From assembly GCF_021531915.1 (NCBI RefSeq), contig NZ_JAFBIV010000001.1, positions 248,001-312,000 of the forward strand: a stretch of 64,000 nt of DNA, given 5' to 3'. The translations under genes were made by a program, and so were the position numbers. Below are positions 24,115 to 49,867 of the stretch, piece by piece. Each line of letters starts with the position of its first letter. The stretch's first letter is position 1. The notes under the pieces were generated by a model. It ran no database searches. It saw nothing but the letters and a program-made list of their open reading frames with translations, and was not told where the DNA came from. The DNA is from Oscillibacter valericigenes (GTDB lineage: Bacteria; Bacillota; Clostridia; Oscillospirales; Oscillospiraceae).

Positions 24115-24209
24115 GGAAACTATTTCCTCCATGGACCATCTATTTACAACATGCAGATGAGTAATATATTAACAAGGTCCATTCTTTTGTGGCTACTGTA
24201 AACCTTCTA

Positions 24210-25187: not shown

Positions 25188-25221
25188 AGACTAAACCTCA
25201 TGATAAAAGCTTTACTCGTTT

Positions 25222-25911: not shown

Positions 25912-25930
25912 CCCCGTCAGATATTACTGT

Positions 25931-26287
25931 TTACAAATAATCTACCAAAGAAAGCTTTCCGGACTCATCAATTTGATTGCCAATATATTCAAGCCCATAT
26001 ACCATGAGACTTCTTAAACAAGTTCTTGGCATATCGGTGTGATACAATGTTCTGAGCAGTATGTCCCATGTACCATCCTTGTCAAAAGAAGTATATGCAT
26101 AATTGGAGCCATTTGAATCCGGAACTACATACGCCAATGGATCAAAAGAATCGAATTGTGTATTAAGAATGTATGCAGCCGCAAAAATTGCTGCTTCATT
26201 TGCACTATCAAACCAGCCTTCCGTCTTAAAACGTTCAGCCACTTGACTTGCACGAGCAGATAATCGGATATCTGTGCTATCAGCCAT
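25931..26287 (-). CDS. Unrecognised 118-aa protein of the defence operon
   Basis: A small acidic protein. Residues 5-45 (RLSARASQVAERFKTEGWFDSANEAAIFAAAYIL) look like a helical DNA-binding or dimerisation segment, broadly of the DndE or ribbon-helix kind, but I cannot assign a family. The C-terminal half has a TWDILLRTLYHT helix. It starts two bases after the stop of the Rad50/DndD-like ATPase gene and ends 19 bases before the SfsA-like gene, so it is cotranscribed and probably a subunit of the same system. Confidence 0.6.
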   Translation of the reverse strand: MADSTDIRLSARASQVAERFKTEGWFDSANEAAIFAAAYILNTQFDSFDPLAYVVPDSNGSNYAYTSFDKDGTWDILLRTLYHTDMPRTCLRSLMVYGLEYIGNQIDESGKLSLVDYL

Positions 26288-26289
26288 CT

Positions 26290-28299: not shown

Positions 28300-28301
28300 G
28301 A

Positions 28302-28493
28302 TTATACCTCCTTGGTGGAAGCAACATACTGAGCAATCGCCTTGTACGTCTCTGCCTCGCGTCTTGCTGGATCATCTTGGTATGCTGCTTGAATCTCAAC
28401 TATTTTTGTAAGGATTTCCGGACTAATGTGAGGATACTTGGTTAATCGAATCTCCTCAATAGTTGAGATCAATTCTTCAAGGCTATTCTTCAT
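28302..28493 (-). CDS. Small helical protein between helicase and ATPase
   Basis: A 63-residue, mostly helical, acidic protein. It overlaps the end of the helicase gene by 11 bases and lies two bases before the SMC-ATPase gene, so its translation is coupled to both. From memory, small proteins in this position have been labelled as DNA-modification-system-associated; I cannot verify that here. It may bridge the ATPase and helicase. There is no motif to suggest catalysis. Confidence 0.65.
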   Translation of the reverse strand: MKNSLEELISTIEEIRLTKYPHISPEILTKIVEIQAAYQDDPARREAETYKAIAQYVASTKEV

Positions 28494-30594
28494 CTTCTAC
28501 ACCTCCATCTAAGAATTCTTCGTAATTAATTCCGAAGTGTAAAGCAATTAATTGTAAATCAGTTATGCAAGCTGGATTCTCTGCGCTTTTACCAAATTCT
28601 ATTGCACGAGAAAGTTCAGCAGCAACAATAGAAAGACTCTTATCCTCTAATACTGACGCTGTATTTGGAACAGCAATTACATCATATAGTGTCGAGAAAT
28701 GCTTGTTCTCATATAGACGAAGGATTCTTCCTCGTCTTTGAATAAACTCGCGAGGATTTTTTGATGAGGCTAAAACAAGAGCATGCGTAGTTGCTGGGAT
28801 ATCTACACCCTCGTCCAAACATTTAATAGAGACCAATACGCCTCCGTTTGTTGCAAAATACGAAAGAGTAGCATTTGTGTCTCCGGGCATATCAGAATAA
28901 TAGACATATGTATCAATGCCCAATTGAGAGATTTCCGTATACACCTTATTTAACTGATCCTTGTCCTCACAATATACAAGCCACTTTTCTCCGTCTTTAT
29001 AGTTCTTCTCAACTATTTCGATAGCTTTCTTGATTTTTCCCTTAGCTTTCTTGATAATACGTGCACGCGTAATCATCAGCATTTGAAGGTAATTATCAAC
29101 AGAAGAACCGTTTTTTCCCTGACTGATAGCATATCTTTTAGATATTTCGCGTGAGAGATTATCCCATTCTTCTTGCTCATCTACCGTTAACGAAACGCTT
29201 TGAGGATGGTAAAAATACGGAGTCAAAACTTTGTCACGAATAGCATCGGCCAATGTGTATGGCGGTTTTAAGATATCTCCAAAATATGACAGTATAGCAT
29301 GAGTGCCTTCGGAATCTCCATATCTCTCCGGCGTTGCAGATACTCCAAAGCGAGCACCCGAAGCAATAGAAAAGAAATTACGTCGGCGATTGCTTCCCAT
29401 GCGATGTACCTCATCTGCCACAACAAACAGATGCTCTCCCCCATAAACTTTCCCAATATATTCCTCTGAACTGGCTGTATCCATTATTGCAATTACAATT
29501 TTGTGTAATGTATCGGAAGGACTCGTCCAATCATTTAATGTAGATGCTTTTCTCCAAGCATTATTACCATCTCCACATAGGAGTATTTGAAGATCTGTCA
29601 TATCAGCAATAACTCTTCGAATTTCCTTTTCCCAATGGTATAGCAGTTCTTTTGCTGGAACTAACACCATGACAGTTTTCTTCATGTCGAGCATCTTACG
29701 AATCGCAGAAATTGCGATAATGGTTTTTCCGCATCCAGTACAGCCTTGATATATTCCGTGATAGCCTTGTTCTTCCCAGCGCTCCAGTGCATCCACCTGG
29801 TGAGGTTTTAATGTAATTGGAGATCTTTTCTTACTTGGAGACCACTTCTCACCGGACCGTCGTTTTACTTGAATCTCTTCGAGAAGTTCTTCCCACGAAT
29901 ATCCGGAACTTTCTTTGCTGATCAGGCTTTTGAACTCACTTGGGAGGGAATACAAAGAGATATTTGAGTATCGTTCTTCCCATATATCATGGAAACATTT
30001 TTCAATAGCTTTTAGTCGCTCTAAATCTTTTCCACCATCCCAGCTTTGAAACACATCTGCAGATTCAATATTTCCGTCACTCGAGAGTCCCTTAAAAGTT
30101 TCATTAAATGATCCACGAAATGCGACTCGATCTCCAGCTAAATCCGAAAAGACTCCGGCTTTATCATGATATAGTTTTCTGACATCTGGGGCACAGTTCT
30201 CTGTGATTATCGCTATTTTCAGTTCGATAATTCCAGCTGCAATTAGACAGGCCAATAAACGAGCTGGCTTTGACAGGGAAGGGCTGTTCAAAAGTTCCTC
30301 TGTTTCTTTCTTTAAAGCCTCTGAAATGAGTGTATCATTTGCTGCGGAACGGCCCTCCTCAATGGCAAGCATATCTTCGTCGGAAAGATATGGGGAACAT
30401 ATCACACGCATCTTACCACCGTGAGATACAAATTCTTTTAAGGCATCCCAAGCAATAATATATATTGTGCTCCCGAAATAGCCAGAAATCCGGTCATATC
30501 TAAATGCATTCGACATGCATGGAATATAGAATTCCTGAGCAACGTCATTATCAAGTTTGTTGTAGGAGCTTAAAAACTCATAATCATGTAGCAT
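28483..30594 (-). CDS. PLD-nuclease/superfamily-2 helicase fusion
   Basis: A 703-residue two-part protein. The N-terminus (about 1-200) is a phospholipase-D-like nuclease: KMRVICSPYL near 58, then YHDKAGVFSDL near 140 and GSFNET near 158, giving the HxK(x)nD and GSxN motif. From about 260 it is an SF2 helicase: Walker A GCTGCGKTI (near 286), DEVH box VADEVHRMG (near 390), SATPERYG (near 415), and motifs V-VI in LDEGVDIP...QRRGRILR (near 600-640). Such fusions occur in restriction-like defence operons, where the helicase tracks DNA and the PLD domain cuts. Its start overlaps the stop of the 459-aa gene. Confidence 0.9.
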   Translation of the reverse strand: MLHDYEFLSSYNKLDNDVAQEFYIPCMSNAFRYDRISGYFGSTIYIIAWDALKEFVSHGGKMRVICSPYLSDEDMLAIEEGRSAANDTLISEALKKETEELLNSPSLSKPARLLACLIAAGIIELKIAIITENCAPDVRKLYHDKAGVFSDLAGDRVAFRGSFNETFKGLSSDGNIESADVFQSWDGGKDLERLKAIEKCFHDIWEERYSNISLYSLPSEFKSLISKESSGYSWEELLEEIQVKRRSGEKWSPSKKRSPITLKPHQVDALERWEEQGYHGIYQGCTGCGKTIIAISAIRKMLDMKKTVMVLVPAKELLYHWEKEIRRVIADMTDLQILLCGDGNNAWRKASTLNDWTSPSDTLHKIVIAIMDTASSEEYIGKVYGGEHLFVVADEVHRMGSNRRRNFFSIASGARFGVSATPERYGDSEGTHAILSYFGDILKPPYTLADAIRDKVLTPYFYHPQSVSLTVDEQEEWDNLSREISKRYAISQGKNGSSVDNYLQMLMITRARIIKKAKGKIKKAIEIVEKNYKDGEKWLVYCEDKDQLNKVYTEISQLGIDTYVYYSDMPGDTNATLSYFATNGGVLVSIKCLDEGVDIPATTHALVLASSKNPREFIQRRGRILRLYENKHFSTLYDVIAVPNTASVLEDKSLSIVAAELSRAIEFGKSAENPACITDLQLIALHFGINYEEFLDGGVEDEE

Positions 30595-31973
30595 TATTGT
30601 TCTCCTAACAATCTGTCAGCATACAGCTGTAATCTCTTGGTTAAGGCAGCTGTGAGGTTCTTCCGACTCGACAAGACTACAATTTCTCCACTTTTTTTGG
30701 TCTGTAGAACGACATCCTCATATGCAGTTTCTAAAATAGGGTCTAGTTTGGTTTGAAGATTTGCCGAATATGCAAAAGTACGGTGTTCTTCAGCGTCCCA
30801 TAGAACATACACACCATTGGTCTGATCTCCATAAGGCATTGCATACCCAACCAGCAGAATGAAAGTTCCGTCTGTATCATCAAGGTAGCCTCTTTCATTT
30901 CTCTGCTGTCCATCAAGAATTAACTGGCTCTTAAATTCATCTGGTTTCCGTCCTCCCGGAGGGCAGGTGCAGTTAAACATATACACTTTGATTTTGCACA
31001 GGAAGGGAGAAGCAAGCTCTATGATAAGCGGTTTTTTCTGCAGATCATCGACCTTTAAAACGGCAGGCCCCAAATCACTAATAAACAATGTATGAAGCTC
31101 TTTCTGTTTTAGCTTTTTTGAACTTTTCATTTCCATAGGCTTTTTCTTTTTTCCCTTCGCTGACGCAGCCTTAGAATAGTACAAGGCAAGTTTTTTCGAA
31201 ACGATATCCCGAATAGTGTTGATGTCGTCTATTGTAAATTCGCGATACAAGTTAGGGGAAATCGAAAAATATTCAACTCCTTCAATTACTTCTTTATTGA
31301 AGAATCCCTTTTGCGAAATAGCTTTGAATGGATTATTGATTATTAATTGATACACCTCTGTTTCAGAGCACATCTCCGGGGAAAACAGGATACTGCTAGA
31401 ATCCGTTTCCGCTTTTAACCCTGACTTTATCCGATTTCTGTAAAAGTCCAGAAACCTGTTAGTAAAGACGTCCGTCCGAATTCTTTCAGCTAAAATGTCA
31501 CTGGAGAAATAACACATATAAAAAGCCAACTTATATGATTTCACATAACCATAGAGGCTTGTTTCATCGCCAAGATATTCAAAGAAAGACCGCTTCATAT
31601 TATCATCTATAATTGGAACTTGCTCAAAGCACTTGAATTCCAAGGTATTATCGGCCACAGACCATATTTCGACATATTGTTTCTCCCGTGCTTCTGTGGG
31701 ATTTACAAAAACATCTCTTAGATGTTTTCCTAAAGGTGATCCCTCAGAATAACGGATTTGAAATATTTCTCTATCAGCAACTTTCATATCAACATGGGTA
31801 AAGATTGCCGAATATGAGATTTCATTCACTATAATACTTATTTGAGATTTTTCTCCGCGCTTTAATGTCAATCCCAATGCTTGCATAAATGCTGCTGATA
31901 GACTCACAGGAATTGTGAGCCCAGCTTTAAGCAATGATTTGTCAACCGTTTTTTTTAGCAAAAGAGTCTTCAT
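30594..31973 (-). CDS. Unrecognised 459-aa defence-operon protein
   Basis: I do not recognise the family. Residues 1-80 read as a beta-rich domain, about 110-270 as helical, and 270-300 as a lysine-rich linker. The last 150 residues contain CPPGGRKPDEFKSQLILDGQQ, then a TFILLVGYAMPYGD strand and a VLWDAEEH strand. That GGRK-DEFK-QL pattern followed by a 'gxxLLVGY' strand recalls sequence- or modification-sensing domains of some restriction endonucleases, but no catalytic set can be named. It overlaps the helicase gene by one base and follows the methyltransferase genes, so it is a candidate specificity or nuclease subunit. Confidence 0.6.
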   Translation of the reverse strand: MKTLLLKKTVDKSLLKAGLTIPVSLSAAFMQALGLTLKRGEKSQISIIVNEISYSAIFTHVDMKVADREIFQIRYSEGSPLGKHLRDVFVNPTEAREKQYVEIWSVADNTLEFKCFEQVPIIDDNMKRSFFEYLGDETSLYGYVKSYKLAFYMCYFSSDILAERIRTDVFTNRFLDFYRNRIKSGLKAETDSSSILFSPEMCSETEVYQLIINNPFKAISQKGFFNKEVIEGVEYFSISPNLYREFTIDDINTIRDIVSKKLALYYSKAASAKGKKKKPMEMKSSKKLKQKELHTLFISDLGPAVLKVDDLQKKPLIIELASPFLCKIKVYMFNCTCPPGGRKPDEFKSQLILDGQQRNERGYLDDTDGTFILLVGYAMPYGDQTNGVYVLWDAEEHRTFAYSANLQTKLDPILETAYEDVVLQTKKSGEIVVLSSRKNLTAALTKRLQLYADRLLGEQ

Positions 31974-32012
31974 ATATTCAACCCTTTCATTAAACTTGGG
32001 AGTTTTTTAGTC

Positions 32013-32849
32013 TTAAAGCAATTGATTGAAACTCCGGGTTGCAACATCAACATACTCCTGAAAAATATCAAAGCCTATGAATCTTCTCCCAAGAGATAAA
32101 GCAGCAATCCCCGTAGTACCTGATCCCATCCAAGGATCAAGAACAATATCCGATTCCTGCGTAGTTGCTTTTATATATTTTTCTGGAAGATATACCGGTT
32201 GAACAGCTTGGTGAATTCCCTTTTTAGAAGATACTCCGCCAGTAATAACATTAAGCGGCAATGCACCTAATGGATTTGGCTCGATTACCTTCTGTTTTCG
32301 CACATATGACAGTCCATTAGTTCTGGGCTTGTATTCGTAACCTTGATATGTTTCCAAGCTATGGGATTCGTAGGGCCGCCTAATTGCGTCAAGATTGATT
32401 TTCCATTTTGGAGCCACAGAGAACCAAAGATTTTGTTCGTATGCATCCTGGCATGCGCACCGCAAACCTGTGGGAACTGGATTACCTTTCACCCAAATTT
32501 CAATGTCAACACAAGAAAGCTCAAACTCTTCCTCCATAAGAATCGCCAATTTCTCAACAATCAGAGAACGCTTTGAGGAATGCTTTGTTGTCGCCTTGTC
32601 ACGGTTTGCCTTAACATTGATAACAATAAAACCATCATCCTGCAAAACATGTCGTGCACCGGCTAAAAATGGTTTCATGTGCTCAAGATAGTCCTTACTT
32701 TTCCATACACCATAATTTCTATCCGCATTAGGATATGGAGGAGATCCATAGATTAGTTTGACGCTTTTGGGTGGGAGAGCCATCATTCCTGCTGCACCAT
32801 CCTGGCACGATGTATAAAACTTAGTGGAAGATGCAATAATATCATTCAT
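32013..32849 (-). CDS. Beta-class DNA methyltransferase (N4-C or N6-A)
   Basis: A 278-residue amino-methyltransferase with motif IV (SPPYPNADRNYG, near residue 35) before motif I (DPWMGSGTTG, near 240), the order of the beta class. SPPY is commonest in N4-cytosine enzymes but occurs in N6-adenine enzymes too, so the target base is open. A long variable region between the motifs would be the target-recognition part. The ATG at 32849 has an AAGGA site nine bases upstream and overlaps the end of the other methyltransferase gene by eight bases. The pair probably protects the host from the rest of the operon or marks self DNA. Confidence 0.9.
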   Translation of the reverse strand: MNDIIASSTKFYTSCQDGAAGMMALPPKSVKLIYGSPPYPNADRNYGVWKSKDYLEHMKPFLAGARHVLQDDGFIVINVKANRDKATTKHSSKRSLIVEKLAILMEEEFELSCVDIEIWVKGNPVPTGLRCACQDAYEQNLWFSVAPKWKINLDAIRRPYESHSLETYQGYEYKPRTNGLSYVRKQKVIEPNPLGALPLNVITGGVSSKKGIHQAVQPVYLPEKYIKATTQESDIVLDPWMGSGTTGIAALSLGRRFIGFDIFQEYVDVATRSFNQLL

Positions 32850-33714
32850 TGTTCTCATTCCTTATCATTGTTATCCATTCCTGTGCCAATTCACAAAACT
32901 GAGGATTAATCTCAATGCAAATCCAATTTCTCCCCAGTCTTTCAGACACAACAGCGGTTGTTCCTGACCCTGAAAAGGGATCCAGCACAACATCACCTTC
33001 ATTGGATCCAGAAAGGATAAAAAACTCCGCAAGCTTTTGAGGAAAACGTGCAGGATGTGAAATACCCGCTGCCTTACATAGTTTATGGAAGGCATCGTTG
33101 CTACTTGTATTTCCTAGCGTAATAACACTACCTGGATCAGATCCTCCATGGTTTTGCCATTTCTGATCTAGCTTAAAATTGTGTCTGCTTGGACGCGTAT
33201 TATCGGCACGATCACCTTTCCCTTTTCCTTGTAAAAACTTCTGCATATCTTTGCTATAAGGTTTCCGAATAGGGTCCATATTGAAAGTCCACTCGTCTGA
33301 TTTACTAAACCAAAAACAATACTCATGAGATTTTTTTGTTCGTCCCATGTTGCCCCTCGAAAAAACATTAGGCGGAGTTGCCGGATTATACCAAATATAA
33401 TCTCTTATCAAATGAAATCCTGCATCCTCACATATTGCAACCACAAGCTTAAACACAAATAAGTCCTGATACTTTCCGACAAGCTTATCACTGATGTTAA
33501 GAACAAAACTGCCGGTTGGTTTCAATACACGATAAAGTTCTTTGACTTTTGGAATGAACCATTCAACATATTTGTCAGTTGAAATTCTTTTTACTTTTTC
33601 ACCGTAATCCTTAATCTGATCCGCATAGGGAGGAGAAGTAAACACTAAATCAACGCATTCGTCCGGAAGTCTTTTCAGTTCTTCCTCACAATCACCGCAA
33701 ATAAACTCATTCAT
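32842..33714 (-). CDS. Second beta-class DNA methyltransferase
   Basis: A 290-residue enzyme with motif IV TSPPYADQ near residue 28 and motif I LDPFSGSGTTAV near 252, again the beta-class order. It shares the frame of its neighbour but differs in the target-recognition region (about 100-220), so the two may modify different sites or different strands of an asymmetric site. Its ATG overlaps the stop of the HTH gene (ATGA), so it is translated straight after it. In defence operons, paired methylases of this sort often allow hemi- or fully modified states. Confidence 0.92.
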   Translation of the reverse strand: MNEFICGDCEEELKRLPDECVDLVFTSPPYADQIKDYGEKVKRISTDKYVEWFIPKVKELYRVLKPTGSFVLNISDKLVGKYQDLFVFKLVVAICEDAGFHLIRDYIWYNPATPPNVFSRGNMGRTKKSHEYCFWFSKSDEWTFNMDPIRKPYSKDMQKFLQGKGKGDRADNTRPSRHNFKLDQKWQNHGGSDPGSVITLGNTSSNDAFHKLCKAAGISHPARFPQKLAEFFILSGSNEGDVVLDPFSGSGTTAVVSERLGRNWICIEINPQFCELAQEWITMIRNENNE

Positions 33715-33911
33715 GAATTTTCACCTTTTTCTTTCACGTATTTGCCACTTTTTACACGTTCATCTCTCGGCTTCTCAGCATCTGCAGGAACCGCCCAGAA
33801 AGATCCAATTTTCGTTGCACCACTTATGCGTCCCTCAGAACACAAAACATTTATTCTTCTGGCTGAAAGACCCCATTTCGCTGCCGTTTGACTAATCGAT
33901 AAATATTCCAT
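33711..33911 (-). CDS. Small HTH regulator heading cargo 1
   Basis: A 66-residue protein with an excisionase/MerR-like HTH (SISQTAAKWGLSARRINVLCSEGRI, about 5-30), a beta-wing and a basic tail with an AEKPRDERV segment. It closely resembles the small HTH protein heading cargo 2 at 48.2 kb: the helix pair, the EGRI-x-GA-x-K turn and the AEKPxDxR tail align without gaps. GGAG lies eight bases before the ATG. It is the first gene of the defence operon and overlaps the first methyltransferase by ATGA, so it may autoregulate the whole set. Confidence 0.82.
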   Translation of the reverse strand: MEYLSISQTAAKWGLSARRINVLCSEGRISGATKIGSFWAVPADAEKPRDERVKSGKYVKEKGENS

Positions 33912-38690: not shown

Positions 38691-39592
38691 AAGCATTCCT
38701 CCGACTTCTTCTTTTCAGAAACGAGCTTGAGGCGGGAATCCGTATCAGACGCCCTGACACCATTCGCCATGCGTTTTTCATGGAGCTGCTTCAGTACAGA
38801 GTTCAGTTTTTCCTCCGCGACATCAGCTGCTCGATCTTCAACCATGTCATAATCCATTTCGGCAAAGTTTTTATGCTGCCAACCGAGGTCCTGCAAAATC
38901 ATATCTCTGCATTCCTGAATCGTGATGCTTGCCAGATCAATCTGACCGCCATCTACTTCAGCAAAGCTTTTGTCGTAGATTGAGTAGTCCCAGCCGTCAT
39001 CCGTGGCGTGGATGGAGAGATACTCCCGGTGGCCAACCTGCCATGCAGCCTGATCCTTCAGCATTTCCGGTTCCGGGCTGGCTTTTCCGTCGCCTCGTTC
39101 CAGAATCTCAGCAAACTGACAGATGTGGTAAACCTCGCCGCCGATCCGGGTATGGTAATCGTCGATGTACTCACAGGGCGCAACGAAGCTTCGGTCCGGA
39201 TAATCGATCTTTACCTTTCCGCCGTCAGGGATACGGAACAATTCATCATAGTTGCTGGTGATAAAGCGGATGCTGTGGTCATGAGGATCCTCCCGGTGCG
39301 CCTTTCGATAGGCTCGTCTGGCGTCCTTGATCTGATCCAGGGTGCGAAGAGCAACTCCGGAAACCACTTCCCCCTTGAAGCCAATCTCCTGAATCGCCAT
39401 CACTCTGGCACAGGCAAGAGGATTTCGAATCGGATTCTCCAGCATATCCTCATAGGTGATCAGACCGGTGTACTGAGCAGCGCCGGTAGTCTTATCAAAG
39501 GCTTCATAGGCAAATCCCGTCTCCATTTCCTTCAAGTGAAGATAGGACTCATTGTCTACCAGATACAGTGCTTCCTTTTTATCGGAAATCAT
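38687..39592 (-). CDS. Large-polyvalent-protein-domain ICE protein (301 aa)
   Basis: A 301-residue acidic protein with repeated alpha/beta motifs. A YEDMLENPIRNPLACARVMA segment (near 48) and an EYLSIHATDDGWDYSIYDK segment (near 192) recall LPD/YodL-type domains of conjugative elements. The function is unknown; family members are thought to be injected with DNA. Overlaps of a few bases on both sides (topB upstream, ArdC downstream) put it in one translationally coupled unit. Confidence 0.6.
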   Translation of the reverse strand: MISDKKEALYLVDNESYLHLKEMETGFAYEAFDKTTGAAQYTGLITYEDMLENPIRNPLACARVMAIQEIGFKGEVVSGVALRTLDQIKDARRAYRKAHREDPHDHSIRFITSNYDELFRIPDGGKVKIDYPDRSFVAPCEYIDDYHTRIGGEVYHICQFAEILERGDGKASPEPEMLKDQAAWQVGHREYLSIHATDDGWDYSIYDKSFAEVDGGQIDLASITIQECRDMILQDLGWQHKNFAEMDYDMVEDRAADVAEEKLNSVLKQLHEKRMANGVRASDTDSRLKLVSEKKKSEECL

Positions 39593-41706
39593 TTTTCTCC
39601 ACCTCCCTTGATGCCGCTGCGGCTATTTTCAAATTCCAGATGGAAGTTGGCCCGTCCGTTCTCTTCCGTGGTGAGAAGCAAAGTGGCGTTGTAGTTCTTT
39701 CCGGATTTCTGACTCTTGCAGTCCTTCAGGCGAATGCGGCCATCCAAAAGCAGCTTCTCAACCATTCCGGAGGATAGATGCTTCCCGATACTCTTGAAAA
39801 AAGCATTGTCCTTCCAGAGAACAAAGCGACATTCCTTTTTGCTACAGAACCAGCCCTTCTGTTTTTCCAGCACATCCGCCTGACAGCAGGGACAGGCTCC
39901 GACTCGTTTGTGATCTGACATAAGTGTTTCTGCTCCTTTCACAGCCTCGTAGTTTTGAACCAGCCCGGAAATCATGTCCGTGATCTCCCGCATGAAGTCC
40001 CTGGCCTCATAATCACCACGCTCCATCCGGAGAAGCTTTTGCTCCCAGTCTGCCGTCATAGAAGCAGACTGAATCTGCTCCGGCATGACCGTAATCAGAG
40101 AATTGCCCTTATCGGTGGAAACAAGATAGCGTGTTTTCTTGTCGCTTTTGCGCTCCATGAAGCCCTTCTGAACCAGCTTTTCAATCGTGCCTGCGCGAGT
40201 GGCAGGGGTACCAAGGCCTTTTCGTTCAGCATCCTCCGGAATATCCTCGGCACCGGCGGTCTCCATGGCAGAGAGGAGGGTATCCTCAGTAAAACGCTTC
40301 GGCGCAGTTGTTTTCCCTTCTTTGATTTCTGCCTGGGATAAAGAAATAATGGCATCCGGCGAAAGGGTTGGACCGGTATAGGCTTCCTTTTCCTTATCCT
40401 TCACCGGATAGAACCGCTGCCAGATATCTTTCCAGCCCCCAAAGAGGACTGTCTTGATCTTTTTCGAAAACTCTTCGCCGCCGCAGGTCAGGACAATGGT
40501 ATCCTCCGCATAGCGATGGTCGGGAGCTGCGGCACAAAGCAGCCTGACCGCAATCAGCTGAAGAATTGCCTTCTCACCGGAGGGAAGCGCGGTAAGATTG
40601 GCAGCGCACATGGTTTTTGTCGGAATAATGGCGTGGTGATCGCTGACCTTCCGGCTATCACACATCACATCTACAGCGATTTCTGTGTTGTCGTCAGATT
40701 TCAATGCAGATGCATCAACACCGATTTTCCCCGCCACCTGAGAAATGAGAGGAGGAAGCATCGGCTTCATGTCATCTGTCAGATATCTGCTGTCGGTACG
40801 GGGATAGGTCACAAACTTCTTTTCATAAAGCGCCTGGGTGTAGTCCAGCGTCTGCTGTGCGGTAAAGCCGAGGATACGGTTGGCATCACGCTGCAGGCTG
40901 GTCAGGTCATAGAGAAGCGGGGCTCGCTCCGTTTTCTCCTTTCGGTTCAAGGACTTGATCACGGCTTTCATGGTCTCCTTACATTTGGCAAGCAGCTGCT
41001 GTGCATCGCCTTTTTCATCAAAACGCCTGCTGGTTGCAATGATACCGTTCAGCCCAAGCTGCACGGTGTAGAAGGGCTTCGGCTGGAAGGCGGCGATCTC
41101 GGCATCACGCATGACGACCATTGCCAGAGTCGGTGTCATTACGCGGCCAACGTTCAGGGTCTGGTGATACAGGCATGAAAAAAGCCGGGTGGCGTTCATT
41201 CCGACAATCCAGTCGGCACGCTCCCGGCAAAGGGCTGCTTCATACAAAGCATCATATTTGCTTGACGGTTCCAGATGGACAAATCCATCCTTGATGGCCT
41301 GATCCTCCATACTGGAGATCCAGAGCCTTTCGAAGGGCTTCCTGCAGCCTGCCTGATGATAGACCAAACGGAAGATGAGTTCTCCTTCACGTCCGGCATC
41401 CGTTGCACAGACAAGGCTTTCGACATCATCGCGCTTCATCAGCTTTTTCAGGATGCCGAACTGCTTCTTGGTAGAAGCTGAGACCTGATACTTCCAGGTG
41501 GCTGGCAGAATAGGAAGGTCTGTAAGTCGCCATTTGGCATAGGTCTCATCGTAGGCCTCCGGCGGCGAGAGCTCTACCAGGTGCCCAACGCACCAGCTGA
41601 CGATATAGTCATTGCCTTCCAAATAACCGTCGCATCGTTTGTTTGCACCCAGAACCTTAGCCAGGGACCGGGCAACCGAGGGTTTCTCGGCAAGTACGAG
41701 TTTCAT
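39589..41706 (-). CDS. topB: DNA topoisomerase III
   Basis: A 705-residue type IA topoisomerase. A Toprim domain is at 1-140 (LAEKPSVARSLAKVLG at the start, CATDAGREGELIFR near 104). The active tyrosine is in FVTYPRTDSRYL near 305, and a C-terminal zinc-ribbon region (CPCC and FCSKKEC, about 620-645) follows. ICE-borne TopB helps separate DNA strands during rolling-circle transfer. Its 3' end overlaps the 301-aa gene. Immediately upstream is the end of cargo 2, separated by a terminator-like hairpin. Confidence 0.95.
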   Translation of the reverse strand: MKLVLAEKPSVARSLAKVLGANKRCDGYLEGNDYIVSWCVGHLVELSPPEAYDETYAKWRLTDLPILPATWKYQVSASTKKQFGILKKLMKRDDVESLVCATDAGREGELIFRLVYHQAGCRKPFERLWISSMEDQAIKDGFVHLEPSSKYDALYEAALCRERADWIVGMNATRLFSCLYHQTLNVGRVMTPTLAMVVMRDAEIAAFQPKPFYTVQLGLNGIIATSRRFDEKGDAQQLLAKCKETMKAVIKSLNRKEKTERAPLLYDLTSLQRDANRILGFTAQQTLDYTQALYEKKFVTYPRTDSRYLTDDMKPMLPPLISQVAGKIGVDASALKSDDNTEIAVDVMCDSRKVSDHHAIIPTKTMCAANLTALPSGEKAILQLIAVRLLCAAAPDHRYAEDTIVLTCGGEEFSKKIKTVLFGGWKDIWQRFYPVKDKEKEAYTGPTLSPDAIISLSQAEIKEGKTTAPKRFTEDTLLSAMETAGAEDIPEDAERKGLGTPATRAGTIEKLVQKGFMERKSDKKTRYLVSTDKGNSLITVMPEQIQSASMTADWEQKLLRMERGDYEARDFMREITDMISGLVQNYEAVKGAETLMSDHKRVGACPCCQADVLEKQKGWFCSKKECRFVLWKDNAFFKSIGKHLSSGMVEKLLLDGRIRLKDCKSQKSGKNYNATLLLTTEENGRANFHLEFENSRSGIKGGGEK

Positions 41707-41774: not shown

Positions 41775-43298
41775 TTAAATATTAAATGGCAATTTGACGG
41801 TTGAAGCAAACTCCTTAAATGCTCCTTTGACTTCTTCCAGTTTTTCAGGAGCGGACTGCGCAACCGCATCTATCGTCTGGTTAGCAAACTCATTTGCTTT
41901 AGTTGCCAGAAACTCTGCCCCTTCTGATCCTAACTCGACTACAGTCTCATAGGCTTCAGTCGCAACAACACAACCGACAACTCCTCCAACAATACCGCCA
42001 GCAACTGTACCAACAGGTCCTGCCACTGTTCCTATAGCAGCGCCTATTTGCGCACCTTCAATGCCACCGGCAACCATTGCAGCATTTCCTCCCAAATTAT
42101 ACGCTAATTCTAATCCATCTATTTTTCCTTGCGCATAATCAGAGATATCCTCATATGACTGAACTGCAAAAGATACCGCTGCGGCAGGAAGACAAGAACC
42201 GCCTATGCTTTGAATCAGTTGATTTGATGAAGCACGCATAGTTTGAGCAACAGCAGTGCTTACGAATGCAGTTCCATAACCCAATGCGCCTGCAGCTGCA
42301 GTATCTTCAACTACATCAACAACCATCTCTGTAGCCGTTATTTCTCCCTCAAAATATGAAGAAACATTATCAACTGTAGATACCACTGCAGTAATACCCG
42401 CAGCCAATGCACCGCTCTTAAGCCCTTCAGCATTACTGACTTTTGCAACCTCACTGGTATACATTTTAGCGGCATACGCTTTAGGATGCATCCGTGCATA
42501 AACAGCCTCATCTGTTGAGACCGTGCTTTTTTCAGCCATTTGTTCCAACTGATTCAATTTGTCAATTCGCCGTTCTAAAGACTGTACAACATCAGTTTTG
42601 CCATCTGCGGAAACTCGTTCCAATTGCTGTTGAAGACTGGCACGTCTATCTTTGATTGCTACTAAAGCGTCATCGTAATAATCTTTAGGACATTCAATTT
42701 TGTCGACAGACCCATCAAAGTATTTGTCGAAATCTTTGGACATCATCTTTGATACCCATTCTTTTCCATTGGCACCAACGAATTTGGTTTGAATACGTTC
42801 AACAATCTGTCCATTAGCATCCACACGAACTTTATCTACAAACTGGTCATTTCGCTTGAATAATTCCGGAAGGTCATCAGCACGAACTGTTTTAATTCCA
42901 GTTCCCTCAGTTTGAGCTATCATATTTTCTTTCCAGGTTGAAACAACCTCAGCTGCATAACCGGATTGCTGTTTGATGTTTTGGACTGCATATTCAGGAT
43001 TGATCTTCCAACTGCTGATTTCTTCAAGGCCTAGCGTGTGGAAGCCATTTTTCTCTATACCATACAGCAATTGGCGTGTTGACTCCATTATCGTTGGACG
43101 TAAAGCAGCTACAGTCGCAGTGTCGTCTATTCCGATTGTTCTAGCAATACTCTCATCCACCGCTGGATCAATACTCTGATAGAAGCCATCCCGGGGTTGC
43201 ACATTTGTATCAAAACCACGGTGTAAAATCTCAAGATGCGCACGCAAATCCAACTGTTCAACTTGGAGGCCTTTTGTATCTAAACTATCTAGTGTCAT
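41775..43298 (-). CDS. Glycine-zipper membrane protein of cargo 2
   Basis: A 507-residue protein not placed in a known family. The N-terminal half is soluble and helical. A DKVRVDANGQIVERIQTKFVG segment near 155-175 has a beta-hairpin pattern seen in some toxin-associated domains, which I cannot name. From about 290 to 470 it has Ala/Gly-rich hydrophobic stretches, the strongest at 420-455, where GxxxG repeats (GAAIGTVAGPVGTVAGG, then GVVG) match a glycine zipper able to span membranes. The C-terminus is amphipathic. Its start overlaps the HerA gene stop by four bases. A role as membrane effector is inferred from the zipper. Confidence 0.7.
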   Translation of the reverse strand: MTLDSLDTKGLQVEQLDLRAHLEILHRGFDTNVQPRDGFYQSIDPAVDESIARTIGIDDTATVAALRPTIMESTRQLLYGIEKNGFHTLGLEEISSWKINPEYAVQNIKQQSGYAAEVVSTWKENMIAQTEGTGIKTVRADDLPELFKRNDQFVDKVRVDANGQIVERIQTKFVGANGKEWVSKMMSKDFDKYFDGSVDKIECPKDYYDDALVAIKDRRASLQQQLERVSADGKTDVVQSLERRIDKLNQLEQMAEKSTVSTDEAVYARMHPKAYAAKMYTSEVAKVSNAEGLKSGALAAGITAVVSTVDNVSSYFEGEITATEMVVDVVEDTAAAGALGYGTAFVSTAVAQTMRASSNQLIQSIGGSCLPAAAVSFAVQSYEDISDYAQGKIDGLELAYNLGGNAAMVAGGIEGAQIGAAIGTVAGPVGTVAGGIVGGVVGCVVATEAYETVVELGSEGAEFLATKANEFANQTIDAVAQSAPEKLEEVKGAFKEFASTVKLPFNI

Positions 43299-46200
43299 TT
43301 CATTACCTCCTCAGTGGACGAGAGCAAGAAGCATATTTCTTCAATGTTTTTTGCATTCAACCCTGCAACCTTGGTTCCAACCATCTGTCTGAGTTCTCCG
43401 GGAGAAGAAATGTTGCCAAGTGTCGTGTTGCTTATGCCGAGTACTTCTTTTAGCAAATCTTGTAATTCAGCTAATCTTTCCTGTTTCCAAATCAAATGAC
43501 CACCGAAGACGATGTAGTCATCAATCAGATGTGAGATTTTCTTTCGTGTACCACGTGTAAGATCCAGAACCTTCAGAGATTCTTCTAAAGTGGTTCTATC
43601 AATAGGATTTCCGCTTATCCATGGCTGCATCAGCATTCTAACAATCTTATTTCGCGCAGTTTTTGCTGTTCTTATTACTGGCAAAACCCCAGGCTGATAT
43701 GCTTCTTCGGTGACATTTGCTTTATGGATAAGGGTCAAGACTGGGCTTATCCAATTATTCTGATATACTACTGCAACACCGCTCGGGAGTTTAGCAATTT
43801 CCTCAACCTGATCGTTAGTTAAGCCAATAGATCTGCCAACCGCTTCTCTGTCATGTGCCTCAGGAGTACGCAACACGATTTTAGTATTTGTATTCTTGAT
43901 AGCCGCAATATCAACTGATGAAGGCGACTGATCCACAATAATAAAGCCTTCGCCATAAGTGCGGATTTCGGCAATTGTATTAGTAAGCATCTCGACTGAT
44001 TTTCCTACCAGCTCAGAAGAAGCATTAGTGGTATTTTTTAATAAATTATGTGCTTCTTCAAGAACCGTAATATGCCGAAGCCCGCTATTGTTACCCTTTT
44101 TTTGATCCATTCGGTATTCATTCAAGATATAAACCATAAGACCCATAATTAGAGCCTTGGTTTCCGTTGATTTCACACGACTAATATCGAGAATACAGTT
44201 CTGATCAAAGAGTTTCTCATACGAAGTCTGCTCATTGGTAAAGATATATTTGTTGAGACCCACTGTAAGAGATTTTACTCTTGTTAGCAAAGCACCTCTG
44301 TAATTTGACTTAATATCAGATGCATACTCTGAATTCCCGATAAGTTCGTCTAATTGTTCTGTGAGCACCTCGAAATCCGGATATTCCAATTCATCCCCTT
44401 CAAAAGTAGAGGAGCCCAAATCCCAACCAATAACCTCGTATGATTTTAATATTGCGTCCTTAAAGAATGCCGGCATAGCATCATACATGGGCCAACAAAC
44501 ACTGAATATTTCAACCAAACCATCAACATGCTCCAGTACATGAATGGAGTCCGGAAACATAAACGGATTCAAGTTAATTAGCGGTGCAATGTTAGGATTT
44601 GTGGAATAAACATTTACATCCGGCAAGTTTCCAAAAACATCCTTATACTCACCTTTAGCGGGCTCTACCACAAGGAACGGAATTTTGTCTTGCCGTAGTT
44701 CCGAAAGCATTTGATATACCGCATTACTTTTACCAGATCCAGTCGAGCCCGTAATAAAAGTATGCATATTGAGGCTTCTGTTATTTAATTCAACAACCTT
44801 GTCTGTCGGATGTCCCAAGTCAAATATGCGACCTATTGTCATGCGGTCTTCTGGAGCTGCACTATTAGCAGTGGAAAACAACTGGTAAGAAGTTACTTCC
44901 TTTCCAAATTCCGCATGTTCAATTACAGGGAGACCAGGAACTGTTGCCCGCGGAAGGCCCAAATGGAGCCCTAACTCTTTGCCACTAACTGCGGTAGCTG
45001 CATTTACACGAATATCTCCACCATAAATAAACTGCGGATGTACAAATCGAGATAAATATGTTGTTAGATCTTCAAAATCCCCAAGGTTTTCAGAATTATT
45101 GCTTCGCCATGAATTAATAGCGGATACCTCACGCCCGGAATTCTCACCATTCATTAGTGAGCGATAGTTGCTTGCTGCAATTTCAGCTGCAGACATATCA
45201 TCAGAAATAAAGTACCCCGCAACATGCCACAGTCCATAACTATCATACTCACTGGTCTTCTTGAGCAAATCATCAACCAGCGACATCATGTCTGTTACCG
45301 CTTTGTTCTCGATAGTAGATGATGTTGTTTGTGATGAGCTCGCAGTTATCTGCTCATTAGGGGCAAGTGAGTTAATAAACCCATTTAATTGTCCGGCAAC
45401 TTGTCCGCCCAACATAGCACCACCTACAGCGCCAATTCCTTGAACGGGAGCCCCTTTTAATGCACCAATTGCCACTCCTGCAATAGATGCAGCAGCTCCA
45501 CCAATCATAGCAGCCTTCTGTTTACCATTCATTTCTGAAAAGGATTTGCTTTTTGACGAAGAAGATCCCGTAGTGTCCGATATCTGCGTTTTTTGAAGGG
45601 GAGACAAGCGCGTATACAAATCCTGATAACTTTTTCGCATCATTTGAATGCTTTGTGGTGACTGGTTATCTGCAATAATCAAACCAGTAAAGGCGCGACC
45701 GCTCATAGCGAGAGAAAGCTTCTCTAAGCCCTGCACAAATTGCTCATTTGGAAGATCCTTTTGTGTTTTACTGTTGCCGACAACACTAACTGAAGCAACA
45801 TTGTTCAATGCCGACAACTTCTTTGAAAGTTCTGCAATGGTTTTCCTATTTTCGTTTTGTACTTTTATACCGGGGAAATGCCCAATGAGAGTCTGTTTCA
45901 GTGTATCTCCAAGAGTAACTGTGGAACGCTTGAATGGAGATCCATCCGGCTCATTATTTCTCACGCCAAGGTAAAACTTTGTCTCTTTACCATCCGAATC
46001 GATAAGCACAAAAACAGAGGCATTATATGTGGCAAGAGTATTAAATACGGTAGTAAATTTATCTGTAACGGGTTCTCCTTTTTGATAAACCATTTCTGTT
46101 ATCCTATACAGACGAATATTACTGATAATGTCCTCCTCGAGCGGGATAAGATCTGTAATCGGAGCAATTGGCATCTCAGATAAACGCGCCAAATACTTTT

Positions 46201-46300
46201 TCCTTACACCCTCATCAATTATCTCTAGTCTGTTTTCTATCGTTATCTGTTGTGGGTCTATGATTTCTACAGAGTCCCTACTTGCCAATGTTGTCTCCAT
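43295..46300 (-). CDS. HerA-type (DUF87) ATPase with glycine-zipper insert
   Basis: A 1,001-residue protein with a HerA/VirB4-like hexameric ATPase domain in its C-terminal half. Walker A GSTGSGKSNA lies near 520, Walker B ITVLEEAHNL near 750, then the FIIVDQSPSS sensor segment near 790. Before it are a 250-residue alpha/beta region of unknown fold and a striking Ser/Gly-rich stretch (about 255-310) holding a second glycine zipper (GGAAASIAGVAIGALKG). HerA ATPases pump DNA or form defence complexes with an effector. It overlaps the membrane protein gene downstream and is two bases from the coiled-coil gene upstream. No NurA or SIR2 partner is present. Confidence 0.85.
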   Translation of the reverse strand: METTLASRDSVEIIDPQQITIENRLEIIDEGVRKKYLARLSEMPIAPITDLIPLEEDIISNIRLYRITEMVYQKGEPVTDKFTTVFNTLATYNASVFVLIDSDGKETKFYLGVRNNEPDGSPFKRSTVTLGDTLKQTLIGHFPGIKVQNENRKTIAELSKKLSALNNVASVSVVGNSKTQKDLPNEQFVQGLEKLSLAMSGRAFTGLIIADNQSPQSIQMMRKSYQDLYTRLSPLQKTQISDTTGSSSSKSKSFSEMNGKQKAAMIGGAAASIAGVAIGALKGAPVQGIGAVGGAMLGGQVAGQLNGFINSLAPNEQITASSSQTTSSTIENKAVTDMMSLVDDLLKKTSEYDSYGLWHVAGYFISDDMSAAEIAASNYRSLMNGENSGREVSAINSWRSNNSENLGDFEDLTTYLSRFVHPQFIYGGDIRVNAATAVSGKELGLHLGLPRATVPGLPVIEHAEFGKEVTSYQLFSTANSAAPEDRMTIGRIFDLGHPTDKVVELNNRSLNMHTFITGSTGSGKSNAVYQMLSELRQDKIPFLVVEPAKGEYKDVFGNLPDVNVYSTNPNIAPLINLNPFMFPDSIHVLEHVDGLVEIFSVCWPMYDAMPAFFKDAILKSYEVIGWDLGSSTFEGDELEYPDFEVLTEQLDELIGNSEYASDIKSNYRGALLTRVKSLTVGLNKYIFTNEQTSYEKLFDQNCILDISRVKSTETKALIMGLMVYILNEYRMDQKKGNNSGLRHITVLEEAHNLLKNTTNASSELVGKSVEMLTNTIAEIRTYGEGFIIVDQSPSSVDIAAIKNTNTKIVLRTPEAHDREAVGRSIGLTNDQVEEIAKLPSGVAVVYQNNWISPVLTLIHKANVTEEAYQPGVLPVIRTAKTARNKIVRMLMQPWISGNPIDRTTLEESLKVLDLTRGTRKKISHLIDDYIVFGGHLIWKQERLAELQDLLKEVLGISNTTLGNISSPGELRQMVGTKVAGLNAKNIEEICFLLSSTEEVMK

Positions 46301-47964: not shown

Positions 47965-48207
47965 TTACGTGGGACTCTCACTATTGTTCCCGGAGAGGCT
48001 ACATTCTTTTTTCTTTCGCCAATTACGACAAGAACCATTAACAATCCGTTTGTCTCCAGGCTTTTCTGCACTTGCCGGTATCGCCCATTCTCTTCCTAAT
48101 TTTGCCGCGCCCTCGATACGACCTTCGACGCAATATGTCTGAACTCGTCGAGGTGTTACATTCCATATTTCTGCGGCTTCTTTAATGCTCATATATCCTT
48201 CGATCAT
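47965..48207 (-). CDS. Small HTH regulator heading cargo 2
   Basis: An 80-residue excisionase/MerR-like protein: SIKEAAEIWNVTPRRVQTYCVEGRI (about 7-31), a short wing, an AEKPGDKRI tail and a basic C-terminus. It is clearly paralogous to the HTH protein heading cargo 1. The ATG at 48207 is seven bases after GGAGG; the longer frame starts at TTG inside the riboswitch terminator tail and is unlikely. It is the first gene after the riboswitch. Confidence 0.83.
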   Translation of the reverse strand: MIEGYMSIKEAAEIWNVTPRRVQTYCVEGRIEGAAKLGREWAIPASAEKPGDKRIVNGSCRNWRKKKECSLSGNNSESPT

Positions 48208-48226: not shown

Positions 48227-48260
48227 AAAAAAACATCGCCGATATAGAAATCAGCAATGT
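48227..48260 (-). terminator. Riboswitch expression platform (intrinsic terminator)
   Basis: On the minus strand ACATTGCTGA and TCGGCGATGT form a ten-base-pair stem (two G-U pairs) around TTTCTATA, followed by TTTTTTTG. It lies between the GEMM-I aptamer and the HTH gene, so aptamer folding can decide whether cargo 2 is transcribed. Confidence 0.85.
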
Positions 48261-48261
48261 C

Positions 48262-48340
48262 GTCAATCCGAATTGCAGCTGGCTGCCATTTTACAGGCCC
48301 TGTAGCTTTGCGTCATATCCTTTCGAATATTTTGCCAAAA
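48262..48340 (-). promoter_or_regulatory. GEMM-I (c-di-GMP-I class) riboswitch aptamer
   Basis: On the minus strand the order of GEMM-I landmarks is intact: GGCAAA, a short stem closed by a GAAA tetraloop (ATATTC-GAAA-GGATAT), then GACGCAAAGC, a second stem CTACAGGGCCTGTAAAATGG, CAGCCAGC and a 3' CGG that pairs weakly with the 5' side. The GAAA loop plus the GACGCAAAGC and ATGGCAGCC receptor are diagnostic of this class. Whether the ligand is c-di-GMP or cGAMP cannot be fixed by eye. A promoter lies upstream and a terminator downstream. Confidence 0.88.
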
Positions 48341-48353
48341 TCTATATATTTCT

Positions 48354-48382
48354 ATCATATTCCGACAAACGAAGGATGTCAA
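48354..48382 (-). promoter_or_regulatory. Sigma-70 promoter of cargo 2
   Basis: On the minus strand a perfect TTGACA (complement of 48377-48382), a 17-base spacer and TATGAT (complement of 48354-48359). The aptamer begins about 15 bases downstream of the -10 box. Confidence 0.8.
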
Positions 48383-48480: not shown

Positions 48481-49611
48481 TTATTCCTGAGAGACCTCAA
48501 CCTCTTCAGAATCGTCCTCACCCAGATACTCGCTTTCATCTTCGTCATTGTCATCTTCCGGTATCTCGTACTCATCGTCGTCATCCTCGGTATAATCCGC
48601 ATCCGGATCAGGTCTCTGTTCAGAGGCCTTTTTCTTTTTCGTCTGCATCATGAAGTAACCGCCTCCGCAGGCAATCAGGACGGTGATCACACCAACGATA
48701 GGCAGCATGTTCACAGGCTTCTTTTCCGTCACCTGAGGCTCCTGGTTCTCAGACTCTGCATCTTCATCGGGTGCAGGTGGAGTGACCTCTGGTTCCTCTT
48801 CCTCGGCATTGGCGGCATCCTGTGCCGTCTGGAACGCCTTTACCTGCTCCTCATCCATGAGTGCAAAGAGATCCGCTTCGTCCACCAAGTTCAGGAGATG
48901 TACGTTCTCTTCGCCCTTGTCGTTGCGGTCGATGATCAGATAGAAATAGTTTCCGGATTTAGTCACCATGGTAATAAACTGCTGACCGGCCCCGGTGGAG
49001 GGACCGATATCATCAACCAGTGTCAGGTTACCGTCAGGGGTAAGGGGAAGAGAAGTGTCTGTTTGATTCATGCTGCTCATCATGAGATAAAGCAGCATTG
49101 CCAGGAACTCTTCATCAATGGTTCCGCTTTCTTCTTCCTTTTTCAGCATGTCCACATAGTCCTTGTACACATAGCCGGTTCTCTCGGGGATCACAACCTG
49201 ATACCAGTCGCCATCCTCGCTGATCACCTGGACCTTTTCGCCGGGAAGCAAATGGCCGATGATCTCATATTCCATGCCGGAACCGGAGCGAAGATTCAGA
49301 TAACTTCTGACCTTGTTGTTGACCGTCGCGTCGGTTCCATCCGTTTCCATGTCTTCGGTGGACCATTCCCAGTCCCCGAAGGAGAAGGTGTAATTGCCGT
49401 CCTCATCAACGCTCACATCGTAAGGGAGCTTTTCCTCCTCCGTTTCCTCTGTGCCAGCCACATCAGGGGTGGTAGTCGCATTTTCTGAAATTACCTCGGG
49501 CTGCTTTTCTGTGCTGTCGCTGTCTGCCGCAGCTGCAAAGCAGGTCGTGGAAAGGGTTCCCATCATCAGGATACCTGCCATGAGTCCTACCATCATTCTC
49601 TTAATAATCAT
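48481..49611 (-). CDS. DUF4366 (CD1107-like) mobile-element surface protein
   Basis: A 376-residue exported protein. It has a signal peptide ([13 protein letters not shown]...CFA, about 1-25), an SH3b-like domain ([11 protein letters not shown] near 110 and [14 protein letters not shown] near 142), a DUF4366 part that ends in an Asp/Glu-rich cytoplasmic tail, and one membrane helix near 300-320. It belongs to the CD1107 family found in Tn1549-like elements and probably helps pass the cell wall. The ATG at 49611, after a GAGGAGGACAG site, is preferred to an upstream in-frame start lacking a signal peptide. Confidence 0.85.
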
Positions 49612-49867
49612 TTTCTCTGTCCTCCTCGTTACTGATTTCAGGCACATCGACCTGTTCCGGATAAACACCGACAGCTCCTTTGGCTGCCAGTTCGATGATC
49701 TGGGCAAGCTGCTCCGGAGTCAGATTGGCAGCGTGAACCATGGAATGAATCACACTGTTTTCCTCCTCGCGATAGCGGTTCTCCAGATCCTTCACGCGCT
49801 GATTCCATTCGGCCTGCTTTATGCGGGCACGCTTCAGGTCAGCGCCGATCTTTTCAAGCTTTGTCAA
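49601..49867 (-). CDS. DUF4315 family protein
   Basis: An 88-residue, strongly helical protein that begins with the [26 protein letters not shown] coil of DUF4315, a small protein next to DUF4366 in Tn1549-type elements. I take the TTG at 49867, since GGAGG sits seven bases before it. The function is unknown; its position suggests a part or chaperone of the transfer apparatus. It overlaps the DUF4366 start. Confidence 0.75.

What the first reader, a model, noticed from the sequence alone, without database searches (positions are those of the whole stretch)
48227..48382. GEMM-I cyclic-dinucleotide riboswitch controls a mobile-element cargo operon
On the minus strand a TTGACA-17-TATGAT promoter is followed within about 15 bases by a GEMM-I aptamer (GGCAAA, GAAA tetraloop stem, GACGCAAAGC, second stem ending ATGG, CAGCC) and then a ten-pair terminator with seven T, directly before the first cargo gene. 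So c-di-GMP (or cGAMP) level would decide whether the four-gene HerA operon is made. A second-messenger switch on ICE cargo links the element to the host signalling state. The host in this very window encodes a GGDEF/EAL and HD-GYP operon next to the attachment site.
Basis: partly seen in the sequence, partly recalled or inferred. Interest (0 to 1): 0.88.

Follow-up and report, generated by a model that had tools for sequence, protein, structure and literature searches.

The report
c-di-GMP riboswitch on mobile toxin-like operon
An RNA switch that senses a common bacterial signal molecule sits in front of a four-gene mobile operon that looks like a nuclease weapon or defence system, and the same arrangement recurs in other gut bacteria, so a mobile element appears to listen to its host's lifestyle signal before making its cargo.

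Summary
Rfam's c-di-GMP-I model scores window 48271-48346(-) at 60.6 bits (cut-off 35). It lies between a TTGACA-17-TATGAT promoter and an intrinsic terminator, 63 nt before the first of four genes: HTH_17 protein, P540 (dynamin-like by predicted fold, tentative), HerA-type ATPase, P507. The ligand-discriminating base is G, pointing to c-di-GMP. The terminator lies outside the aptamer, and a competing helix pairs the aptamer's GGCAA core and 5' strand with the terminator's 5' arm and loop (1 of 200 shuffles as strong): I predict an OFF switch. The leader belongs to the cargo: no aptamer at 8 other CD1107 loci with downstream sequence. It recurs before the same module in L034, L035 and Ruminococcus albus plasmid pRUMAL01; with the window, 4 of 42 assessable loci. 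In relatives the P507 slot holds interchangeable nuclease domains, often with SUKH or YezG-like immunity genes next to it: a polymorphic-nuclease module. Aptamer plus HTH occurs at eight loci, window included. Ligand binding, direction and operon function are inferred.

The parts
48354..48382 (-). sigma-70 type promoter TTGACA-17-TATGAT; the spacer carries TTCG (TTGAC-N4-TTCG), shared with some related leaders
48271..48346 (-). c-di-GMP-I (GEMM-I) riboswitch aptamer, G at the ligand-discriminating position (Vc2 G20)
   Evidence: 60.6 bits, RF01051
48232..48261 (-). intrinsic terminator hairpin, the expression platform; bases 48257-48244 (5' arm and loop) also pair with the leader and aptamer 5' strand 48345-48332 as a predicted antiterminator
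47965..48207 (-). HTH_17 (excisionase-like) small DNA-binding protein, 80 aa; first gene of the operon
   Evidence: PF12728 33.5 bits
46303..47925 (-). P540: dynamin-like by predicted fold (tentative), N-terminus related to a plasmid dynamin GTPase
43295..46300 (-). HerA-type P-loop ATPase, 1001 aa
41775..43298 (-). P507: conserved REase-like nuclease candidate region (by motif inspection) followed by a glycine-zipper-like region; the same slot holds other nucleases in relatives
39589..41706 (-). ICE core topoisomerase gene; right edge of the cargo
48481..49707 (-). ICE core CD1107-like gene; left edge of the cargo

Best explanation
A transcriptional c-di-GMP-I riboswitch controls the mobile operon HTH_17 - dynamin-like P540 - HerA ATPase - nuclease-like P507. 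Shown by sequence: promoter, aptamer, terminator and operon. Inferred: when c-di-GMP is bound, the aptamer holds its 5' strand and GGCAA core, the terminator forms and the operon is off. When c-di-GMP is low, that strand pairs with the terminator's 5' arm and loop long enough for transcription to read through. The operon is a candidate polymorphic nuclease (toxin or defence) module, so it would be made mainly in low-c-di-GMP, motile-type cells. The leader plus HTH is a cassette found in front of different cargo.
For: RF01051 hit far above cut-off; promoter and terminator. The terminator does not overlap the aptamer, the topology that PMC9262584 gives for the Cd1 OFF switch (passages). Before the terminator's 3' arm is made, the antiterminator fold is the minimum (-25.7 against -24.3 with the aptamer pairs enforced); afterwards folds with the terminator win. 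The competing duplex is -11.7 against a shuffle mean of -7.2, 1 of 200 as strong. Aptamers lie upstream of the same module in L034, L035 and L104; L104 was not in the model. Aptamer plus HTH at eight loci, window included. Nuclease swapping and immunity genes in relatives. 11 GGDEF matches over the cut-off in the host genome.
Against: No ligand or expression data. At full length the unliganded RNA is also predicted to end in a terminator fold (-30.3), so switching must be kinetic. The antiterminator beat shuffles clearly only in the window; of six other leaders L103 and L111 were marginal by duplex energy (18 and 19 of 200) and the other four were not. 38 of 42 assessable P540 loci lack an upstream aptamer, so riboswitch control is not general to the module, and L054, next to L034 in the tree, lacks it. 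The window's P507 is followed by the ICE topoisomerase, not an immunity gene, and its nuclease reading rests on motif inspection: no nuclease hit in Pfam, AlphaFold pLDDT 60.5, no fold match. P540's dynamin reading is weak (TM about 0.2; best second-aligner match is the toxin MakE). L034 has A at the discriminating position.
Confidence: 0.66

Rival explanations
1. Same riboswitch, but an ON switch: c-di-GMP binding blocks the terminator and turns the operon on.
For: The aptamer family includes ON switches (pilM in PMC9262584). The enforced-aptamer and alternative folds are close in energy, and the full-length unliganded RNA is predicted to terminate.
Against: In the pilM ON design the terminator uses an aptamer strand; here the hairpin 48261-48232 is outside the aptamer 48271-48346, and the alternative helix found disrupts both aptamer and terminator.
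Confidence: 0.18
2. The RNA senses another cyclic dinucleotide such as 3',3'-cGAMP, tying the cargo to CD-NTase-type immune signalling.
For: GEMM-I includes cGAMP binders, and the G20A change lets the class bind cGAMP (passages in PMC6274999 and PMC8835794); the HerA-linked L034 aptamer has A there.
Against: Window, L035 and L104 have G; the host has many GGDEF domains; Rfam's best family is c-di-GMP-I.
Confidence: 0.08
3. The riboswitch is an ordinary host-type GEMM that came to lie next to the cargo by chance, with no lasting link to it.
For: Only 4 of 42 assessable loci carry it; GEMMs are common in these bacteria (15 of 48 genomes).
Against: Three further aptamer+module pairings, all on the coding strand within 1.8 kb (L034 and L035 are close in the tree and may share one origin); with 1-7 GEMMs per GEMM-bearing genome far fewer than one would be expected by my estimate. 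HTH partner shared with L034.
Confidence: 0.1
4. The operon is an intracellular anti-phage system (HerA-nuclease type) rather than a delivered toxin.
For: The HerA ATPase resembles anti-phage HerAs in PADLOC and NCBIfam (below NCBIfam cut-offs) and solved HerA chains; LeoA is among the top fold matches of P540; the window P507 has no adjacent immunity gene.
Against: Swappable colicin-type, LHH, WHH and non-specific nucleases with SUKH or YezG-like immunity genes downstream are usual marks of inter-bacterial polymorphic toxins.
Confidence: 0.4

Closest known systems
c-di-GMP-I (GEMM-I) riboswitch, Rfam RF01051; Cd1 of Clostridioides difficile as OFF example
   Same: Aptamer sequence and structure; promoter-proximal; separate downstream terminator; G at the discriminating base
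   Different: Precedes a mobile-element operon; predicted antiterminator uses the leader and aptamer 5' strand, whereas the passages read of PMC9262584 describe the A strand for Cd1
Polymorphic toxin systems (nuclease toxins with SUKH immunity)
   Same: Exchangeable nuclease domains in one gene slot and immunity genes next to them in relatives
   Different: Conserved partners are P540 and a HerA ATPase; no export route identified; window copy lacks an adjacent immunity gene
Anti-phage HerA systems (SIR2-HerA, DUF4297-HerA, mads_8; first two names recalled)
   Same: HerA/DUF87 ATPase domain
   Different: PADLOC finds nothing for P540 and only weak LeoB and PDC-M09B hits for P507; partner genes differ
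LeoA / bacterial dynamins
   Same: Predicted P540 fold ranks MxA, LeoA, MxB first in the PDB by Foldseek; relatives on E. coli and Lactococcus plasmids have two annotated dynamin genes upstream of HerA
   Different: P540 has no Pfam dynamin hit; low TM-scores; GTPase activity doubtful
Tn1549/CTn-like ICEs (CD1107, CD1108, CD1110 families)
   Same: The element carrying the cargo
   Different: In three relatives CD1107 is followed by the topoisomerase within 0.4 kb; here 6.8 kb of cargo lies between

Membership tests
c-di-GMP-I riboswitch (RF01051) | Covariance-model score above gathering threshold | tested here: met
   60.6 bits against 35
c-di-GMP-I riboswitch (RF01051) | G at Vc2 position 20 (G20A admits cGAMP) | tested here: met
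   G in the window by alignment to the Rfam consensus; role of G20 from passages of PMC6274999; numbering mapped by me
c-di-GMP-I riboswitch (RF01051) | Expression platform: intrinsic terminator before the first gene | tested here: met
c-di-GMP-I riboswitch (RF01051) | Binds c-di-GMP and changes expression | not testable with these tools
   needs in-line probing, ITC, termination assay
cGAMP (GEMM-Ib) riboswitch | A at position 20 | tested here: not met
   G in the window; A in the related leader L034
Polymorphic toxin system | Conserved partner genes with exchangeable toxin domains | tested here: met
   Endonuclea_NS_2, LHH, WHH/Colicin-DNase in the third-gene slot of 7 of 10 relatives sent; P540 found at 50 of 59 HerA loci
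Polymorphic toxin system | Cognate immunity gene beside the toxin gene | tested here: inconclusive
   Of 15 relatives looked at 9 downstream genes were sent: 5 SUKH, 1 YezG-like, 3 without a family over its cut-off; 4 had no ORF in range and 2 ORFs were not sent. In the window the next gene is the topoisomerase
Polymorphic toxin system | Delivery to other cells | not testable with these tools
   needs competition assay
Known anti-phage HerA systems | Known effector partner gene | tested here: not met
   P540: no PADLOC hit; P507: only weak LeoB and PDC-M09B hits; HTH a weak mad1 hit
Dynamin superfamily (P540) | Dynamin fold | tested here: inconclusive
   Foldseek E about 2e-4 to MxA and LeoA but TM about 0.2; VIA-align best row is MakE Z 9.7, then Ras-like and receiver domains, dynamins at Z about 8, in the range the tool calls common
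Tn1549/CTn-like ICE | CD1107, CD1108, CD1110 family genes with integrase and mobilisation genes | tested here: met
   NF045971 1120 bits, NF045974 237 bits, PF14283, PF00589, MobA_MobL

The most novel reading that the evidence does not exclude
A portable 'promoter - GEMM - terminator - HTH_17' cassette puts mobile competition or defence operons, and through read-through possibly the ICE's own downstream transfer genes (no promoter-like site was found between P507 and the topoisomerase), under c-di-GMP repression. The weapon and the element's mobility would then be released when the host leaves the sessile state.
Probability: 0.3. Interest if true: 0.82.

Novelty: new variant of a known kind. 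Interest (0 to 1): 0.62.

Why it matters
c-di-GMP riboswitches are known for motility, biofilm and virulence genes. A recurrent one on a mobile P540/HerA/nuclease operon would show horizontally moving weapons or defences wired to the host lifestyle signal. It also gives a handle for testing an undescribed module: one small molecule should turn it on or off. In my literature searches no paper held both 'c-di-GMP riboswitch' and 'integrative conjugative element'. Five held it with 'conjugative transposon'; in the one I opened (PMC6200980, passages) the only use is in a reference title, though its text mentions c-di-GMP-affected genes for transfer of mobile elements.

Tried and rejected
HerA and P540 as queries in IMG/VR found almost nothing: one P540 relative, L107, no aptamer. 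P540 in 391 genomes of the class: only the window's own genome. HerA in 300 genomes of the host family: 11 with a match at E <= 1e-30, the host's own included; the ten others are at most 52% identical, and their loci, which reach only 1.5 kb beyond the HerA match, carry no aptamer. The promoter+GEMM pattern in viral contigs gave 4 stretches, none with an aptamer by the model: chance. AlphaFold of P507 was too poor to use.

I considered the TTGAC-N4-TTCG motif a fixed part of the cassette. It is exact in 5 of 36 GEMM loci listed (window, L034, L035, L103, L096) and in L163, but two letters off in L144, absent from L169, L171 and L179 and from L104. L096/L111 has no HTH as first ORF. So it is a subset feature only. 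The antiterminator argument was tested in seven leaders: window 4 of 200 shuffles by pairs and 1 of 200 by duplex; L103 24 and 18; L111 45 and 19; L104 34 and 132; L035 78 and 77; L144 101 and 65; L034 144 and 108.

Weak points of the counts: 18 of 59 HerA loci could not be judged for lack of upstream sequence or of P540; one of the judged loci, L023, shows only 1.2 kb. L035's P540 appears in two frames, perhaps an assembly error. Two of the ten other CD1107 loci, L153 and L156, end 4 bases after the match, so only eight count; in four of these eight no topoisomerase match lay within the flank, and in L149 it lay 0.9 kb away. One search was given 49 of 57 loci because of a limit of 50; the remaining 8 were searched as loci. 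The HTH profile A7 was built from aptamer-linked members, so favours them, and only the 30 loci handed out by each HTH search were scanned.

Full report
What is there. The window's minus strand reads promoter (48382-48354), c-di-GMP-I aptamer (48346-48271, 60.6 bits, cut-off 35) and terminator (48261-48232), then four genes: an HTH_17 protein, P540, a HerA-type ATPase and P507. No other promoter-like site on the minus strand was found between the terminator and P540 (a 9-of-12 match lies inside the aptamer). The own genome holds three RF01051 aptamers and 12 GGDEF domain matches, 11 over the cut-off. An EAL-GGDEF gene, a GGDEF-HD gene and the integrase lie in this window.

Ligand. The base that distinguishes c-di-GMP from cGAMP binders (G20 of Vc2; G20A binds cGAMP, PMC6274999, passages) is G in the window, L035 and L104, and A in L034. 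I mapped the numbering by hand. c-di-GMP is therefore the likely ligand here; this was not measured.

Direction. PMC9262584 (abstract, outline and passages) contrasts the OFF switch Cd1, where terminator and ligand-bound aptamer coexist and the antiterminator competes with the aptamer, with the ON switch pilM, where the terminator uses an aptamer strand. The window has the Cd1 layout. Before the terminator's 3' arm is transcribed, the lowest-energy fold pairs AUAGA..UUGGCAA (leader and aptamer core, 48345-48332) with UUGCUGA..UCUAU (terminator 5' arm and loop, 48257-48244): -25.7 kcal/mol against -24.3 with the aptamer pairs enforced. After the arm is made, folds with the terminator win: -30.3 unconstrained and -29.7 with the aptamer enforced, against -28.4 for the antiterminator. 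So even the unliganded full-length RNA is predicted to terminate at equilibrium and the switch would have to be kinetic, as PMC9262584 says of Cd1 (its antiterminator refolds with time). The duplex is stronger than 199 of 200 dinucleotide shuffles, and expected aptamer:terminator pairs exceed 196 of 200. Of six other leaders tested the same way, L103 and L111 are marginal by duplex energy, L104 shows a like-placed pairing without significance and the rest are at chance. OFF is thus an inference at about 70%.

The riboswitch travels with the cargo. HerA relatives were found at 57 loci in species-representative genomes. With L104 and L107 added, P540 relatives were found at 50 and P507 relatives at 36 of 59 loci. 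A model built from 21 aptamers, scanned over 72 HerA or P540 loci, finds aptamers in L034, L035 and L104 only. L104, the R. albus 7 plasmid pRUMAL01, was not in the model; its aptamer ends 73 bases before P540. In L034 the order is aptamer, terminator-like hairpin, HTH (56% identical to the window's), P540, HerA and P507-type gene. In L035 three other ORFs intervene (read by eye). With the window this is 4 of 42 loci that have P540 and at least 500 bases before it. On a 52-row HerA tree (quick method) the label needs 4 gains or losses, at least 3 by well-supported branches, and is not clustered. Ten other CD1107 loci were scanned and none carries an aptamer; eight of them show about 1 kb or more after the match. 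In L150-L152 the topoisomerase follows within 0.4 kb, in L149 after 0.9 kb, and in four others it was not seen within the flank. So the leader most likely entered with the cargo.

A riboswitch-HTH cassette. Relatives of the HTH gene follow an aptamer in the window, L034, L103 (=L165), L144, L163, L169, L171 and L179; L172 is a weak ninth (27.4 bits). Denominators: 2 of 30 HTH loci (the window's own and L144), 4 of 30 (plus the weak one), both sets being the loci handed out for the best matches of larger lists; L163 came from a pattern scan in which 2 of 299 genomes matched, G317 (the source of L034) and one new. No P540, HerA or P507 relative was found by tblastn in the 2.9-16 kb held around L103, L144, L163, L169, L171, L172 or L179. 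Downstream genes differ: an ABC-transporter-like gene in L196, membrane proteins in L197, AbrB- and HU-like genes in L199 (all named by eye), and in L195 an ATPase matching SpoVK and EccA models below their cut-offs. So most cassette-bearing loci carry other genes.

What the operon may do. The HerA protein matches DUF87 (42.6 bits) and several HerA models. P540 has no family; AlphaFold gives pLDDT 88.7. Foldseek ranks MxA, LeoA and MxB first with E about 2-5e-4 but TM below 0.2. The second aligner puts the pore-toxin subunit MakE first (Z 9.7), then Ras-like and receiver domains over residues 135-248, with dynamins near Z 8, a range the tool calls common. The N-terminal 80 residues align with the larger dynamin gene of an E. 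coli plasmid relative (28%, E 4e-5 for that comparison). In that plasmid the order is two dynamins, a hypothetical protein, HerA, HNH nuclease and SMI1/KNR4; a Lactococcus plasmid has two dynamins, two hypothetical proteins, HerA and HNH. P507 in the window has a conserved RADD...D...E.Q.K pattern that I read as REase-like (no search confirms it) and a glycine-rich hydrophobic region. In other loci the same slot holds Endonuclea_NS_2 (L019, L022, L035, L044), LHH (L042) or WHH/Colicin-DNase (L057, L061) (10 proteins sent, two without hits, and L043 a methyltransferase). Of nine genes just downstream in such loci, five are SUKH and one YezG-like immunity proteins; three have no family over its cut-off (six more loci looked at gave no candidate that I sent). 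The module is best read as a polymorphic nuclease system. Whether it acts on neighbours or on phage-infected cells is open.

Downstream consequence. Between P507 and the topoisomerase no promoter-like or terminator-like site passed the scan, though a C-rich/G-rich hairpin is visible by eye. Transcripts from the riboswitch promoter could reach ICE core genes, so c-di-GMP might also affect transfer. This is speculation.

Verdict. The riboswitch is an ordinary, well-scoring member of a known class. Its repeated coupling to a mobile P540/HerA/nuclease module, and its partnership with an HTH_17 gene, are the new part. I noticed no report of either in the listings of searches of an open-access library; only those listings and the passages named were read.

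Noticed in passing
window 17877-17934 (-) and 17297-17695 (-): Rfam pemK RNA (RF02913, 69.1 bits) upstream of a 132-aa ORF with a weak MazF match.
   Followed up: partly
window 20206-33714 (-): Second cargo block: two N6/N4 DNA methyltransferases, an MTaX1-domain protein, a helicase matching PbeA (668 bits), an ATPase matching PbeC (611 bits), a WYL protein and an Orf5/HEC-06-like protein: a restriction or defence island.
   Followed up: partly
window 33738-33908 (-): A second HTH_17 paralogue (47% identical) in the same ICE without a riboswitch.
   Followed up: no
L001 and L002 (own genome C10 and C22): The other two c-di-GMP-I aptamers of the genome precede large, repeat-rich, apparently secreted proteins, judged by eye from the ORF translations.
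   Followed up: no
L034:7847-7923: HerA-linked aptamer with A at the ligand-discriminating position, possibly a cGAMP or promiscuous variant.
   Followed up: no
L111:7006-7082 (-): Aptamer with the same promoter motif but followed by a short acidic ORF instead of HTH_17.
   Followed up: partly
L195:1731-2870 (-): Aptamer-HTH cassette upstream of a cluster with an ATPase matching SpoVK and EccA models below their cut-offs.
   Followed up: no
L113:12216-12530 (-): Two aptamers whose starts lie about 240 bases apart on the same strand.
   Followed up: no
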